From: an uncultured Holophagaceae bacterium | GTDB taxonomy: Bacteria > Acidobacteriota > Holophagae > Holophagales > Holophagaceae | Assembly: GCA_903839205.1 (NCBI GenBank) | Contig: CAIMBM010000026.1 | Coordinates: forward strand, 1 to 33,050 | DNA: 33,050 nucleotides | Direction of reading: 5' to 3' | Shown here: piece by piece, positions 160 to 6,605 of the stretch | Layout of the letters: the number at the start of each line of letters is the position of its first letter | How positions within the stretch are numbered: position 1 is the stretch's first letter | Position numbers and translations under genes: made by a program | The notes under the pieces: model-generated | Seen by the model: only the letters and a program-made list of their open reading frames with translations | Told to the model about the DNA's origin: nothing | Databases searched by the model: none

Positions 160-1149
160 CTAGAGCGTCGGCAGGTGCATGGCCTCGCGGACCTCGACCA
201 TGGTCTCGGCCGCCACGGCCCGGGCCCGGGCGCTGCCATCCCGGAGGACTTCCTGGATGTTCTCGGGGCGGGCCAGGTGGGACTCGATCTGCTCCCGCAC
301 AGGTTCGACCCGGCGGGTGATGGCCTCGGCCACGCGCTTCTTGCAGTCGAAGCAGCCGATGCCGGCCCGGCGGCACTCGGTGTTCACCAACGCCAAGGTC
401 GCGTCATCGCTGAAGAGCTTGTGAAACTCGAAGACCGGGCAGATGTCGGGGTTGCCCGGATCAGTCTTGCGCACCCGGGCCGGGTCCGAGGCCATCTGGC
501 GGGTGCACTTCTCCAGGATCTCGGCGTTGGTGTCCCGCAGGTAGATGCAGTTCCCGTAGCTCTTGGACATCTTGCGGCCGTCCAGGCCCGGCACCTTGGG
601 GGTCTTGGTGAGGACCGCCTCAGGCTCGGGGAAGACCTCGCGCTTGAAGAGGAAGTTGAAGCGCCGAACCACCTCCCGGGCCAGCTCCAGGTGGAAGAGC
701 TGGTCCTCGCCCACGGGCACCTTGTGGGCCCTGTAGACGATGATGTCGGCGGTCTGCAGCAGGGGATAGCCCAGGAAGCCGTAGCTGCCCAGGTCCGCCA
801 CGGCGTTCTGCAGCTTCTCCTTGTAGGTGGGCACGCGTTCCAGCCAGGAGAGCGGCGTCACCATGGAGAGCAGCAGGTGCAGCTCCGCGTGCTCCTTCAC
901 CAGGCTCTGCACGAAGATCGTGGCCTGGCTGGGATCCAGCCCCGCGGCCAGGTAGGTGGCCGTCAGCTCCTGGGTGGCCGGCCAGATCTCCTCCACGGAT
1001 TCATACTTCGAGGTCAGGGCATGCCAGTCGGCGATCATGTAGAAGGCCTCGCCCTGGCCCTGCAGGCGGGTGAAGTTGTCCAGAGCCCCCACCAGGTGGC
1101 CGATGTGCTGGGAGCCCGAGGGCTGGATGCCGGAGAGGACACGATGCAT
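160..1149 (-). CDS. trpS: Tryptophan-tRNA ligase
   Basis: This cytoplasmic class I aminoacyl-tRNA synthetase charges tRNA-Trp with tryptophan using ATP. The 329-residue protein has the family's normal length. It starts MHRVLSGIQPSG, with the ATP-binding HIGH motif at residues 15-18 and the KMSKS loop at 193-197. The segment GYPLLQTADIIVYRAHKVPVGEDQ at about 127-150 is typical of TrpS. The frame stays open far upstream, but the ATG at 1149 is the natural start because it gives the conserved N-terminus. Only five bases separate it from the stop of the protease gene upstream, so the two are probably cotranscribed. A site-2 protease next to trpS is, from memory, a recurrent pairing in several bacterial phyla. 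No missing motifs were seen. Confidence 0.97.
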   Translation of the reverse strand: MHRVLSGIQPSGSQHIGHLVGALDNFTRLQGQGEAFYMIADWHALTSKYESVEEIWPATQELTATYLAAGLDPSQATIFVQSLVKEHAELHLLLSMVTPLSWLERVPTYKEKLQNAVADLGSYGFLGYPLLQTADIIVYRAHKVPVGEDQLFHLELAREVVRRFNFLFKREVFPEPEAVLTKTPKVPGLDGRKMSKSYGNCIYLRDTNAEILEKCTRQMASDPARVRKTDPGNPDICPVFEFHKLFSDDATLALVNTECRRAGIGCFDCKKRVAEAITRRVEPVREQIESHLARPENIQEVLRDGSARARAVAAETMVEVREAMHLPTL

Positions 1150-1154
1150 GGGGG

Positions 1155-1904
1155 TCAGGCTCCCAGGAAGAGGCGGGCGATCAGCACGAGGCCTGTTTGG
1201 ACCACGATGAAGACGGGACTGAGGAGGTAGCCGAGGATCCCCGTGAGGGCCAGGACGATGAGCAGCCCGCCCATCCAGGGCTGGACACGGTCGAACTTCG
1301 GCAAGTACCTCCAGGGCAACATGCCGCGCAGGATGCCGGCCCCATCCAGGGGACCCATCGGCAGCAGGTTGAAGAGGGCGAGGCCGATGTTGATGAGCAC
1401 CAGGCGGCCACAGAGCGCCAGGGCCAGCGTCGTCCCCGTGCCCATTCCAAGGGCCTGGAGGCCTTCGACCCTCCCCATGAAGATCGCGTGGAGAAAGAGG
1501 GGGACCTGGACGCTCGGAGCGGGGGCCAGGACCCGGGCCAGGACCAGGAGGATGCCGATGAAGATCACCGAAAGGGCCAGGTTCGAGGCGGGACCGGCGG
1601 CGGCCACCATGGCATAGCCCGTCCGCTGGTTGAAGCGCCGGGTGAGGTTGCGGGGGTCCACGGGCACGGGCTTGGCCCAGCCGATGAAGGGGAACCCGGT
1701 GGTCATGCCCAGGAGGGGGAACACGAAGGTGCCCAGGAAATCCATGTGGGCCAGCGGGTTCAAGGTCATCCGCCCGAGCCTGGCAGCGGTGTCGTCCTCC
1801 AGCAGGTAGGCGGCCGAGGCGTGGCTGGCCTCGTGCACGCTGAGGCTGAAGAGCAGCGCCACGTAGCTGACAAGGATGGTGGGGATGGAAATGCTGTCGA
1901 ACAC
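1155..1904 (-). CDS. Site-2-type zinc metalloprotease, M50 family
   Basis: A multi-pass inner-membrane protease predicted to cut within transmembrane segments; its substrate cannot be read from the sequence. The 249-residue protein has the zinc-binding HExxH motif (HEASH, residues 24-28) in its first hydrophobic segment and the family motif NPLAHMD at 49-55. A GPASN motif lies at about 104-108, and the third ligand region NLLPMGPLDG at 179-188 carries the Asp at 187. It looks catalytically complete. No PDZ or CBS domain is present, so it belongs to the compact S2P group rather than RseP. The start is GTG at 1904, preceded by GGAG at six bases. It is the first gene of a likely operon with trpS and is divergent from the aldehyde-dehydrogenase-like gene across a 161-bp gap. 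Confidence 0.93.
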   Translation of the reverse strand: MFDSISIPTILVSYVALLFSLSVHEASHASAAYLLEDDTAARLGRMTLNPLAHMDFLGTFVFPLLGMTTGFPFIGWAKPVPVDPRNLTRRFNQRTGYAMVAAAGPASNLALSVIFIGILLVLARVLAPAPSVQVPLFLHAIFMGRVEGLQALGMGTGTTLALALCGRLVLINIGLALFNLLPMGPLDGAGILRGMLPWRYLPKFDRVQPWMGGLLIVLALTGILGYLLSPVFIVVQTGLVLIARLFLGA

Positions 1905-2065
1905 CCGGACTCCGGCAATTCTCCAGTGTACAGGCCCGGGGCCGGTCCAAGACAGGGGGAGTCTGCCGCGTCCAAACTACTGGGCGGGCGCCCCTGGCCG
2001 ATGACGGGTGCAGGGTCTGCCTTCCAGGCGCCCACGTTGCGACCCTCCCCACTCAGGAGTCCGGC

Positions 2066-3640
2066 ATGTATCTGAAAGCCAACTCGCCCCATGCTGCCAC
2101 CGCCGGAAAGAGCATCATCGGGTTCAACGTCGTGAATGGGAAGGAGATCGAGGGCGACCTCTCCCTGATCCAATGCAAGTCCGCGGTGGACCACCGGGAC
2201 CTGGTGGGCATGTTCCCCGACAGCGGTGAGAAGGACGTGGCCCGGGCCGCCAAGGCCGCGGCCGACGCGTTCAAGGACTGGGCCGGAACGAATGCCGCGG
2301 CCCGGGAGGGCGTGGTGCACCGCACCGCCGGGATCCTGGCCGCCCACCAGGACGTATTCGCCCGCATCATCACCCGGGAAATCGGCATGTCCCCTCCGGA
2401 AGCCCGGGCCGAAGTCCAGGAGGCGATGGATGCCTGTGCGCACTTCATCGCCGAGTCCCGCCGCAACCAGGGCCGGAAAGCCAGCCCCGGCCGCACAGCC
2501 CACCGGCGCCCCGCAGGCGTCTGCGGCCTCCTCGCCACCGGGAGCTCGCCGCTGGCGGCCCCTGGGCGGAGGCTGCTCCAGGCGATCCTGTGCGGCAACA
2601 CCGTGGTCTGGAAACCCAGCGACAACGCCCCCGCCACGGCCTACCTCCTGCTGTGCGCCATGATGGAGGCGGGCCTTCCGCCCGGCGTGGTGAACACCAT
2701 CAACGGCCGCGGGCGGGCGGGCTGCGGGAAGCACTTCCTCGCGGGGATCGACAAGGGGCTCTTCCAGTCCTTCAGCTTCATCGGGTCCGCGGCCCTGGGT
2801 CGGACCGTGGGCGAGATCTGCGGCCGCAACCTTCTCCTCCCGAACCTCGACCTGGTCGGCCGGGGCACCCTGGTGGTCCTGCCCGATGCTGACCTGGACC
2901 GGGCCGTCGAGGATGCCCTGGTCGGCGCCTTCGGCCAGGCGGGGCAGCGGCCCATGGGCCTGGTCAACATCCTCCTGCATGAAGCCAGTGCCCTGCCCTT
3001 CAGGCAGCGCTTCCTGGACCGGGTGGCCACCCTGGAGGTGGGCAATCCCCTGAGTGATCCCCAGGTCGCCTACGGGCCCATGATCAATGCCCGCGCCGCC
3101 ACGGCCTTCCGCGACCACTGCAAGGCGGGGCAGGACGAGGGCGCCGCTCTATTGTGCGGTGGCGACCAGTGGACCGAGGCCAACCGGGACGGGCGGGTGA
3201 AGGGGAACATCAGCCATGGCGTCTACCTGCAGCCCTGCGTATGGGACGGGGTGAGGCCCGAGATGGGGCTGTTCCGGGACCAGGTCCCTGGCCCCTCGGC
3301 GAACCTCTCCACGTTCAGGGACATCGAAGAGGCCCTGGCCTGGATCAGTGGCGGCGCCTGCGGCCCCATCCTCAGCGTCCATACCGAGGACCGCACTTCG
3401 GTCGGCCGCTTCAAGCGGGAGACCCGGACGGACATCCTCCTCGTCAACGCCGGCTCGGAGCAGCCGGGGGCCCGCCTGCCCTATACCGGCCAGGGCACCT
3501 ACCCGGGCGGCCACCTGGCCATCGAAGGATTCACCAGGTGGCAGACGTCGAACGAGGACCCTGCACTCGACTCCGAGCCCGGGGCCACCGTGGCGCCGGC
3601 GCCCAAGGGTGCCATCCACACCGACTGGTCCAGTCTGTAG
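2066..3640 (+). CDS. Aldehyde dehydrogenase fold protein lacking catalytic residues (probable pseudoenzyme)
   Basis: An intact 524-residue protein of the aldehyde dehydrogenase superfamily, closest by eye to the ALDH7/aminoadipate-semialdehyde group. Recognisable parts are CGNTVVWKPSD near 173-183, the FIGSAALG cofactor segment and PDADLDRAVEDA. The AGQR motif normally ends in the catalytic cysteine, but here it reads AGQRP, with Pro at 296. The catalytic glutamate motif ELGG is LDLVG, with Asp at 262. That is exactly 34 residues before position 296, as Glu268 to Cys302 in ALDH2. The PWNFP motif carrying the oxyanion Asn is TGSSP (158-162). Three core catalytic positions are therefore changed in an otherwise open frame, so normal dehydrogenase activity is unlikely. 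AGGAG lies six bases before the ATG. It ends seven bases from convergent tlyA. Its real role is unknown. Confidence 0.88.
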   Translation: MYLKANSPHAATAGKSIIGFNVVNGKEIEGDLSLIQCKSAVDHRDLVGMFPDSGEKDVARAAKAAADAFKDWAGTNAAAREGVVHRTAGILAAHQDVFARIITREIGMSPPEARAEVQEAMDACAHFIAESRRNQGRKASPGRTAHRRPAGVCGLLATGSSPLAAPGRRLLQAILCGNTVVWKPSDNAPATAYLLLCAMMEAGLPPGVVNTINGRGRAGCGKHFLAGIDKGLFQSFSFIGSAALGRTVGEICGRNLLLPNLDLVGRGTLVVLPDADLDRAVEDALVGAFGQAGQRPMGLVNILLHEASALPFRQRFLDRVATLEVGNPLSDPQVAYGPMINARAATAFRDHCKAGQDEGAALLCGGDQWTEANRDGRVKGNISHGVYLQPCVWDGVRPEMGLFRDQVPGPSANLSTFRDIEEALAWISGGACGPILSVHTEDRTSVGRFKRETRTDILLVNAGSEQPGARLPYTGQGTYPGGHLAIEGFTRWQTSNEDPALDSEPGATVAPAPKGAIHTDWSSL

Positions 3641-3647
3641 GGCCCCT

Positions 3648-4427
3648 TCAGAACCCGAGCGCGGCCAGCGCAGCGCCCAGATCCCCGGGTGCCTGGCCCA
3701 GCCCCAGTCGCATCAGGAATTCCGTATTCCCCTCCCCGCCTTTGATGGGGCTCAGGGCGAGGTCTCCGGGCCGGAGTTCCGTGGCAGCGAAATAGGCCCA
3801 GACCTCCCGCAGGACACGGTGGTGGACCGCCGGATCGCGCACGATGCCGCCGGCGCCCACGTCGTCCCGGCCCGCCTCGAACTGGGGCTTCACCAGCAGC
3901 ACGGCCTCGGCTCCCGGAAGGAGGCTGGGCAGCACCGGGGGGATGGCCAAGCGGAGCGAGATGAAGCTCAGGTCCGCCACGAGCAACTGGCAGCGTTCGG
4001 GGATGGAGGCTGGATCCCAGGTGCGCAGGTTCACCTGCTCCAGGGAGACGACCCGCGGGTCGCTGCGCAGCTTCCAGTGGAGCTGGTTGGTGCCCACGTC
4101 CACCGCATAGACCCTTGCCGCCCCGCGCTGGAGCAGACAGTCCGTGAAGCCCCCGGTGCTGGATCCGGCATCGAAGCAGGTGAGCCCGGCTGGATCGATG
4201 CCCCACCGGTCCAGGGCCCCGGCCAGTTTCAGCCCCCCCCGGCTCACGAAGGGCAGCGCGTCGCCCCGCAGGCGGATGTGGGCGGCCTCATCCACCGCCG
4301 TCCCGGCCTTGGTGACCGGGCGGTCCTCCACCAGCACCTCGCCCGCCAGGATGCGGGCCTGGGCCTTGGCCCGGGTCTCGCAGAGCCCGCGCTGCAGCAG
4401 CAGGTGATCGAGGCGAAGTTTAGCCAC
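3648..4427 (-). CDS. tlyA: TlyA family rRNA 2'-O-methyltransferase
   Basis: Predicted to methylate ribose 2'-hydroxyls of cytidines in rRNA using S-adenosylmethionine; family members are also annotated as hemolysin A. The 259-residue protein has an N-terminal S4 RNA-binding domain (about 5-65) and an FtsJ/RrmJ-like methyltransferase domain. The SAM motif DAGSSTGGFTD is at 86-96. The presumed catalytic-tetrad positions are present: GGLK near 64-67, ADLSF at 151-155, VKPQFE around Lys180, and KGGEGNTEF near the C-terminus. The start is GTG at 4427, overlapping the last eight bases of mltG, which implies translational coupling. It ends close to the convergent gene at 3640 with no terminator hairpin seen. 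Confidence 0.94.
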   Translation of the reverse strand: MAKLRLDHLLLQRGLCETRAKAQARILAGEVLVEDRPVTKAGTAVDEAAHIRLRGDALPFVSRGGLKLAGALDRWGIDPAGLTCFDAGSSTGGFTDCLLQRGAARVYAVDVGTNQLHWKLRSDPRVVSLEQVNLRTWDPASIPERCQLLVADLSFISLRLAIPPVLPSLLPGAEAVLLVKPQFEAGRDDVGAGGIVRDPAVHHRVLREVWAYFAATELRPGDLALSPIKGGEGNTEFLMRLGLGQAPGDLGAALAALGF

Positions 4428-5436: not shown

Positions 5437-5483
5437 GCCTCCAGAATGCCGTGATAGCGTGGATTGATCCACCAGGGGGACCC

Positions 5484-6605
5484 ATGACCCATGTCGTCAT
5501 TCTTGGAGCCGGACGGGTCGGCGGGGCCATGGCCAGGGACCTGGCCCAGGATTTCAAGGTCACGGTGGTGGACCGCTCCGAGGCGGCCCTGTCGAGGTTG
5601 CGGGAGGAGGGCCTGGCCACCCGGGTGGCGGATCTGTCAGGCCCGGCGGACGTGAGAGGCGCCGTCGCGGACGCCGACCTCGTGGTGGGCGCAGTGCCAG
5701 GCTTCATGGGCTTCGCCACGGCCAGGGCCGTGCTGGAGGCCGGCAGGCCCCTGGTGGACATCTCCTTCTTCGACGAGGACTGCTTCGAGCTGGATGCGCT
5801 GGCGAAGGGCCAGAACCTCACAGCCATCGTGGATTGCGGCATCGCCCCTGGCTGCGGGAACCTCATCCTGGGCGATGCCTCCCGCCAGTGGGACCGCATC
5901 ACCCGCTTCGAATGCCTCGTGGGCGGCCTGCCCGTGGTCCGCACCTGGCCCTACGAGTACAAGGCCGGCTTCAGCCCCATCGACGTCATCGAGGAGTACA
6001 CGCGCCCGGCCCGCTACGTGGAGGCCGGCCAGGTGGTCACCCTCCCCGCCCTGTCCGAGCCTGAACTGCTGGACTTCGAGGGCCTGGGCACCCTGGAGTC
6101 CTTCAACACCGATGGCCTGCGCAGCCTCATCAGGACCTTCCCGCAGGTCCCAGACATGAAGGAGAAGACCCTGCGCTACCCCGGCCACATCGAGAAGATG
6201 CGGGTGTTCCGCGAATCCGGCTTCTTCGGCAAGGGGAAGATCCGAGTGGCCGGCACGGAGATCAGCCCCCTGGACCTGACCACGGCCCTGCTCTTCCCCA
6301 TGTGGTCCATGCAGGAAGGCGACGAGGACTTCACCGTCATGCGGGTCACCGTCGAGGGCGAGCAGGGCGGCCGGCGGGTGCGGAAGGAACTGAGCCTGCT
6401 GGACCGCTACGACCGCACCACCAAGATCACGTCCATGGCCCGCACCACGGGCTACACCTGCACGGCCGCCGTGCGCCTGGTGGCCCAGGGTGGCTACACC
6501 CGCCCAGGCATCAGCCCGCCGGAACTTGTGGGCCAGCAGCCCGGCGCCTGGGACTTCATCAGGGCAGACCTGGCGAGACGGGGTGTGGTTTTCACTGAAA
6601 AGTGA
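5484..6605 (+). CDS. Saccharopine dehydrogenase family protein, lysine 6-dehydrogenase-like
   Basis: A soluble NAD(P)-dependent oxidoreductase of the saccharopine dehydrogenase superfamily. The 373-residue protein opens with a Rossmann nucleotide-binding motif (VILGAGRVGG) and has the DCGIAPGCGN segment near 122-131 that I associate with lysine 6-dehydrogenase-like members. These are single-domain enzymes of about 370-390 residues, matching the length here. If the assignment is right it would oxidise an amino acid such as lysine towards the aminoadipate semialdehyde level. The substrate is inference. The start is the ATG at 5484 after AGGGGG; an upstream in-frame ATG at 5451 has no such site and would add residues before the Rossmann strand. 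It ends base-to-base against convergent rapZ. Confidence 0.85.
   Translation: MTHVVILGAGRVGGAMARDLAQDFKVTVVDRSEAALSRLREEGLATRVADLSGPADVRGAVADADLVVGAVPGFMGFATARAVLEAGRPLVDISFFDEDCFELDALAKGQNLTAIVDCGIAPGCGNLILGDASRQWDRITRFECLVGGLPVVRTWPYEYKAGFSPIDVIEEYTRPARYVEAGQVVTLPALSEPELLDFEGLGTLESFNTDGLRSLIRTFPQVPDMKEKTLRYPGHIEKMRVFRESGFFGKGKIRVAGTEISPLDLTTALLFPMWSMQEGDEDFTVMRVTVEGEQGGRRVRKELSLLDRYDRTTKITSMARTTGYTCTAAVRLVAQGGYTRPGISPPELVGQQPGAWDFIRADLARRGVVFTEK

What the first reader, a model, noticed from the sequence alone, without database searches (positions are those of the whole stretch)
2066..3640. Intact aldehyde dehydrogenase gene with the catalytic Cys, Glu and Asn all replaced
The frame is open and well translated, but the AGQRC cysteine is Pro296, the ELGG glutamate is Asp262, and the PWNFP asparagine position is Ser160 in TGSSP. 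The Asp262-Pro296 distance (34) equals Glu268-Cys302 in ALDH2, so the alignment of the two key sites is firm. Loss of three separate catalytic positions with the fold conserved suggests a selected non-enzymatic role, such as ligand binding or partnering with a dehydrogenase.
Basis: partly seen in the sequence, partly recalled or inferred. Interest (0 to 1): 0.62.

Follow-up and report, generated by a model that had tools for sequence, protein, structure and literature searches.

The report
Bacterial aldehyde dehydrogenase turned pseudoenzyme
A bacterium and about two dozen related species keep an intact aldehyde dehydrogenase gene whose catalytic machinery has been dismantled, while six close cousins keep the working version at the equivalent gene location, so this "dead enzyme" and its possible non-enzymatic job can be studied by direct comparison.

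Summary
ORF 2066-3640 (524 aa) is a full-length ALDH-fold protein (Pfam Aldedh 2.7e-84; nearest solved relative Thermus thermophilus ALDH, 39% identity). The three catalytic positions read Ser160, Asp262 and Pro296. It is not an error or a recent accident: 23 species of one GTDB genus carry orthologues, all without Cys and Asn and mostly with Asp for Glu; the nicotinamide-ribose Glu, the gating Phe and 5 anchor-loop residues are also gone. Six species of the genus and 15 phylum outgroups keep an intact site, and active and dead copies share one locus beside trpS and an M50 peptidase. Catalysis was thus lost once on the stem of this clade, and independently in genus g9 (AU p = 1.2e-49). No dead copy has a stop; dN/dS is about 0.14-0.27; the Shine-Dalgarno is kept in 23/23; the adenosine-phosphate half of the NAD site (99.5%) and both terminal arms are kept. 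Best reading: a selected, non-catalytic, dinucleotide-binding oligomer. Caveats: faster evolution, several clean deletions in sister species, and loss of the ancestral -10 box in the window's own lineage. The kind (pseudo-ALDH, as human ALDH16A1) is known; I found no report of this bacterial series.

The parts
2066..3640 (+). pseudo-aldehyde dehydrogenase gene, 524 aa, stop included
2055..2059 (+). Shine-Dalgarno AGGAG, 6 nt before ATG; GGAG at the same place in 23/23 dead orthologues
2543..2545 (+). Ser160 codon, position of the oxyanion Asn (ALDH2 N169)
2849..2851 (+). Asp262 codon, position of the general base Glu (ALDH2 E268, ALDHTt E261)
2951..2953 (+). Pro296 codon, position of the nucleophile Cys (ALDH2 C302, ALDHTt C295)
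3281..3283 (+). Gln406 codon, position of the Glu that holds the nicotinamide ribose (ALDHTt E404)
3482..3487 (+). site of the 5-residue deletion in the substrate anchor loop (active: PFGGNGWSG; here PY-TG), between residues 473 and 474
   Evidence: anchor loop defined in PMC6127216
2612..2620 (+). Lys183-Pro-Ser185, retained adenosine-ribose/2'-phosphate contacts (ALDHTt Lys182, Ser184)
2783..2788 (+). Gly240-Ser241, retained pyrophosphate-binding turn (ALDHTt Ser240)
2066..2095 (+). conserved N-terminal 10 residues, expected partner of the C-terminal arm in the oligomer
   Evidence: arm contact described in PMC6127216
3620..3637 (+). conserved C-terminal end TDWSSL of the arm
1155..1904 (-). 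M50 site-2-protease-like gene, divergent neighbour that marks the ancestral locus (named from own knowledge of the sequence)
160..1149 (-). trpS, second marker of the ancestral locus
3648..4427 (-). tlyA-like (S4/FtsJ) gene; directly abuts the M50 gene in species that have lost the ALDH gene (named from own knowledge of the sequence)

Best explanation
The gene encodes a pseudoenzyme that descends directly from a working ALDH of the Thermus-type, C-terminal-arm subfamily. Shown at sequence level: Asn and Cys were lost on the stem of one clade within the genus, the base Glu became Asp in most of it, and nicotinamide-side and substrate-anchor residues were replaced or deleted, while the coding frame, translation signal, fold, adenosine-phosphate half of the coenzyme site and both terminal arms stayed under purifying selection. 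Inferred: the protein no longer oxidises aldehydes; it still folds into an ALDH-like oligomer and binds NAD(P)(H) or another adenosine nucleotide in an unreactive way, acting as a ligand sensor, sink or scaffold rather than as a dehydrogenase.
For: Residues. 23/23 orthologues lack Cys and Asn; 20/23 have Asp at the base. The active state is ancestral: 15/15 phylum outgroups and 6 same-genus species intact. Orthology by shared locus. Sister clades in the SecA tree, 100/100. Constraint: no stop in any copy, NG86 dN/dS 0.14-0.27, third/second-position change ratio 3.4-5, similar to active pairs, SD in 23/23. Adenosine/pyrophosphate set 0.995 conserved and 8/8 same residues as active, about 0.0001 of random sets reach this; catalytic/nicotinamide set 0/6 same. 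N-terminal 10 residues 0.887 and C-terminal TDWxxL 0.899 conserved against 0.378 for the middle of the arm. Fold: AF2 pLDDT 68, pTM 0.72, Foldseek best 6fjx TM 0.80. A second, independent loss of Cys in g9 with the gene kept.
Against: No ligand, partner or expression was shown. The dead lineage evolves faster: distance ratio to trpS 3.98 against 1.11 for active copies. The gene was cleanly deleted in several sister species. The ancestral -10-like box TAT(G/C)CT is absent upstream of the window copy and 9 other dead copies, and the window lineage has about twice the usual changes at conserved sites. Adenosine-side residues may also be kept for folding. The two residue sets were chosen by me from the literature, not blind.
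Confidence: 0.55

Rival explanations
1. A gene in slow retirement: catalysis was lost when its pathway became redundant, and the coding sequence is now under weak, declining constraint and is being deleted lineage by lineage.
For: Faster evolution than active copies; clean absence in 10 sister genomes with M50 abutting tlyA and no relic, at least four to six deletions on the SecA tree; promoter-like box lost in 10/23; the genome has four other ALDHs, including P5C and piperideine-6-carboxylate dehydrogenases.
Against: No stop or frameshift in the 25 dead copies; simulated neutral drift of 0.1 substitutions per site leaves only 12-19% of copies free of stops, and many independent branches are that long; dN/dS well under 1; clade-specific invariant residues such as T158, G159, S161 and D456.
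Confidence: 0.22
2. An enzyme with changed chemistry: the remodelled pocket catalyses something other than aldehyde oxidation, with new residues such as Ser161, Asp262 and Asp456.
For: Dead-clade-specific invariants T158, G159, S161, D456 and F489, nearly invariant G267; the whole pocket is replaced rather than one residue.
Against: The Cys position is variable (P15 S2 L2 Q2 T1 A1) and no new nucleophile sits there; Asp262 is not universal (E in 3); the substrate anchor loop is shortened and poorly conserved (0.635).
Confidence: 0.14
3. A regulatory subunit that forms mixed oligomers with one of the genome's active ALDHs.
For: Terminal arms used in subunit contacts are conserved; mixed tetramers with an inactive chain are known for human ALDH2 (PMC10211241).
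Against: The other ALDHs detected in the genome are only 28-30% identical over the match; mixed ALDH oligomers are known between near-identical chains (own knowledge).
Confidence: 0.06
4. Sequencing or assembly error, or a single-strain mutation.
For: The window is from an 86%-complete draft genome in 279 contigs.
Against: The same pattern in 22 other species, several on closed or near-closed genomes such as G011, G021 and G036.
Confidence: 0.01

Closest known systems
Thermus thermophilus ALDH (6fjx/6fk3/6fku, PMC6127216)
   Same: Fold, length, C-terminal arm, adenosine-side coenzyme contacts; best sequence and fold match (39% identity, TM 0.80).
   Different: ALDHTt is an active NAD(P)-dependent dehydrogenase with Cys295, Glu261, Glu404 and an intact anchor loop; all are changed here.
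Human ALDH16A1 (pseudoenzyme without the catalytic triad, PMC10650815)
   Same: ALDH fold with Cys, Glu and Asn all missing, thought to act through non-catalytic interactions.
   Different: ALDH16A1 is a longer protein with an additional ALDH-like region (own knowledge); here a single-domain bacterial protein of another subfamily, with active orthologues in the same genus.
Omega-crystallins of molluscs (PMC10650815; loss of activity in some from own knowledge)
   Same: ALDH-derived protein reused for a non-enzymatic purpose.
   Different: Animal lens proteins; no relation in locus or subfamily, and no sign of bulk structural use here.
ALDH-like non-catalytic domain of long PutA proteins (own knowledge)
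   Same: An ALDH fold kept without catalysis; a proline dehydrogenase gene lies near the dead gene in many genomes.
   Different: Here a free-standing protein, not a domain of PutA; the PRODH gene is separate.

Membership tests
ALDH superfamily (PF00171) | Sequence profile above the curated cut-off over most of the length | tested here: met
   283.8 bits against cut-off 23, residues 43-476
ALDH superfamily (PF00171) | ALDH fold | tested here: met
   AF2 model pTM 0.72, Foldseek top hits all ALDHs, TM 0.80; local confidence low in 465-517
Catalytically active ALDH | Nucleophilic Cys, general-base Glu and oxyanion Asn | tested here: not met
   P296, D262, S160
Catalytically active ALDH | Aldehyde oxidation with NAD(P)+ | not testable with these tools
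   Needs purified protein
Thermus-type ALDH with C-terminal arm | C-terminal extension that ends in a segment packing on the N-terminus of another subunit | tested here: inconclusive
   Extension present, ends TDWSSL; TDW end conserved together with the N-terminal 10 residues, middle variable; packing itself not modelled
ALDH16 family | Long protein with a second ALDH-like region (own knowledge) | tested here: not met
   524 aa, single Aldedh match
Pseudoenzyme (defined by lack of conserved catalytic motifs in sequence, PMC10211241) | Catalytic motif positions replaced while homologues keep them | tested here: met
Pseudoenzyme (defined by lack of conserved catalytic motifs in sequence, PMC10211241) | Gene maintained by purifying selection rather than decaying | tested here: met
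   weaker than in active copies
NAD(P)-binding protein | Binds NAD(P)(H) | not testable with these tools
   Adenosine-side contacts conserved, nicotinamide-side contacts lost

The most novel reading that the evidence does not exclude
In one bacterial family, one ALDH lineage has twice and independently been converted at its native locus, without gene duplication, from an enzyme into a selected non-catalytic adenine-dinucleotide-binding protein, with living intermediates (active; Cys-to-Gly with Glu kept; full triad lost), so that the new function must have been present already in the active ancestor.
Probability: 0.35. Interest if true: 0.72.

Novelty: new variant of a known kind. Interest (0 to 1): 0.5.

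Why it matters
Many known pseudoenzymes arose from a duplicate while an active copy went on working. Here the dead protein sits at the ancestral locus as the only copy of that subfamily in its genome, with active orthologues in sister species and an intermediate in between. That is a clean natural series in which to ask which non-catalytic property of an ALDH was selected before catalysis was dropped. It also warns annotation pipelines, which would label these genes 'aldehyde dehydrogenase' and count them in metabolic models.

Tried and rejected
Single-strain mutation or error: rejected by 22 further species. Dead extra paralogue beside an active copy: rejected, one copy per genome at E<=1e-90 and at the locus of the active orthologues. 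Translocated Cys: no position near 296 gains a conserved Cys in the dead clade; only L048 (G069) shows a GQCRA variant. All catalytic losses as one event: rejected by AU test, p = 1.2e-49. First AF2 run with 3 sequences gave pLDDT 40 and was not used. A species tree from M50+trpS+tlyA was disturbed by probably displaced M50 copies and replaced by a SecA tree. YN00 dN/dS was unstable at high GC, so NG86 and position-wise counts were used. Substrate of the active ancestor: no NCBIfam equivalog reached (best 2,5-dioxovalerate dehydrogenase, 384 of 750 bits). Literature searches found no bacterial case of this kind, within an open-access library only.

Full report
WHAT IS THERE. It is an ALDH by profile (PF00171, 283.8 bits). 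Its nearest solved relative by sequence is the Thermus thermophilus ALDH with an extended C-terminal arm (6fk3, 4.6e-98). In that alignment TGSSP stands on AGNFP, LDLVGRG on LELGGKN and GQRPMG on GQRCTS, so Ser160, Asp262 and Pro296 stand at the oxyanion Asn, the base Glu and the nucleophile Cys. In ALDHTt the base and nucleophile are Glu261 and Cys295, with Lys182 as a third conserved residue, Ser240 and Glu404 as coenzyme contacts and residues 464-466 as aldehyde anchor loop (PMC6127216).

HOW WIDESPREAD. In the GTDB family 48 of 77 genomes hold an orthologue at E<=1e-90, one per genome. In the genus of the window, 23 sequences (the window and 22 orthologues 58-81% identical to it) all lack Cys (P15, S2, L2, Q2, T1, A1) and Asn (S16, A3, T2, C1, I1), and 20 have Asp and 3 Glu at the base. 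Two more (L033, L034; genomes G016, G027) have Gly for Cys and Thr for Asn, with Glu kept. Six same-genus species (L028-L032, L037) and 15 of 15 phylum outgroups have the complete site. Four species of genus g9 have Arg for Cys and a hydrophobic residue for Asn, with Glu kept. Forcing all Cys-less sequences into one clade is rejected (AU p = 1.2e-49; parsimony gives two losses of Cys).

THE WHOLE POCKET IS REMODELLED. Besides the triad, the dead clade replaced residues that are invariant in the active sequences: F161 to S, W168 to R, T239 to V/I, G264 to V, N267 to G, T291 to Q/H, T297 to I/V, E406 to Q/P, F408 to L/P and others. It also lost 5 residues of the anchor loop. By contrast K183, S185, G240, S241 and the neighbouring adenosine/pyrophosphate positions are 99.5% conserved and identical to the active family (8 of 8; about 1 in 10,000 random sets of positions is as conserved), whereas 0 of 6 catalytic/nicotinamide positions keep the active residue. 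The first ten residues and the last six (TDWxxL), which in ALDHTt belong to the region where the tail meets the N-terminus of another subunit, are more conserved than average (0.887 and 0.899 against 0.770), although the middle of the arm drifts (0.378).

SAME LOCUS, NO DUPLICATION. Active and dead copies are both divergent from an M50 peptidase gene followed by trpS. The dead gene is thus the orthologue of the active one, not a spare copy. In species that lack the gene, M50 abuts the tlyA-like gene with no relic (10 genomes). A SecA tree splits the genus into 6 active species and 38 species with a dead, Gly-type or missing gene (100/100 support each). Deletions happened several times inside the second group. 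SecA was not recovered for G016.

CONSTRAINT. None of the dead copies has an internal stop. NG86 dN/dS of close dead pairs is 0.14-0.27, of active pairs 0.03-0.18. Third positions change 3.4-5 times as often as second positions in dead pairs, similar to active pairs. Simulated drift of 0.1 substitutions per site leaves 12-19% of copies without a stop, so survival of all copies by drift is not credible. A GGAG Shine-Dalgarno lies 5-6 nt before ATG in 23/23. But protein distances relative to trpS are 3.98 in the dead set against 1.11 in the active set, so constraint is weaker or different. A -10-like TAT(G/C)CT at about -27 to -36, found upstream of most active copies and 13 dead copies, is missing in 10 dead copies, the window included; the promoter scan finds nothing in the window there. 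The window and its nearest relative also show about twice the usual rate of change at otherwise conserved sites. The window's own copy may therefore be further down the road than its relatives.

STRUCTURE. With 18 sequences the AF2 model reaches pLDDT 68 and pTM 0.72; the nearest PDB chains are all ALDHTt, TM 0.80. Residues 465-517 are not modelled with confidence.

FUNCTION. The own genome holds further ALDHs with the Cys motif intact, among them P5C dehydrogenase (TIGR01236, read as a fragment at the edge of the fetched locus), piperideine-6-carboxylate dehydrogenase (NF050084, above cut-off), ExaC (above cut-off) and an MdlD-like one. A proline dehydrogenase gene lies beyond trpS in most dead-clade genomes, and an FAD oxidoreductase of the DAO family stands next to the ALDH in several other genera. 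The active ancestor may have served amino-acid or amine catabolism, but no specific family is reached. The best-supported reading is an oligomeric, non-catalytic adenine-dinucleotide binder. Loss of the catalytic residues, retention of the adenosine half and retention of the frame are shown at sequence level; inactivity, binding, oligomer and role are inferred.

NOVELTY. Pseudo-ALDHs are a known kind: human ALDH16A1 lacks all three catalytic residues (PMC10650815). A bacterial case with active orthologues in the same genus, a living intermediate and an independent parallel was not found in the library, which lacks most subscription journals. I rate it as a new variant of a known kind.

Noticed in passing
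L045, L046, L047, L050 (genomes G065, G066, G068, G070, genus g9): Independent loss of the ALDH Cys (to Arg) and Asn (to Ala/Ile/Val) with Glu and the anchor loop kept; a second pseudo-ALDH lineage.
   Followed up: partly
L048 (G069) and L051 (G071): Further odd active sites: GQCRA with Asp for Glu in G069; Asn replaced while Cys and Glu stay in G071.
   Followed up: no
window 2030-2060 and upstream of orthologues: A TAT(G/C)CT box about 30 nt before the ALDH start is shared by active and many dead copies but missing in the window lineage.
   Followed up: partly
L055-L059, L073, L074, L035 and others: Proline dehydrogenase gene placed beyond trpS in most genomes with a dead ALDH; in same-genus genomes with an active ALDH it lies on another contig or far away.
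   Followed up: partly
L062, L064, L066, L070, L071, L072: DAO-family FAD oxidoreductase between the M50 peptidase and the ALDH; not seen in the loci of the window's genus.
   Followed up: partly
L073 (G031), also G020 and G022; trpS of L063/L064 (g9): The M50 copy of G031 is only 56% identical to the window's, where most of the genus has about 70-82%; G020 and G022 group with distant copies in the M50+trpS+tlyA tree; trpS of g9 is only 36% identical. Probable gene displacement at this locus.
   Followed up: no
window 5451-6605 (+): Saccharopine-dehydrogenase-like gene near the dead ALDH; kept at this locus also in most species without the ALDH gene.
   Followed up: partly
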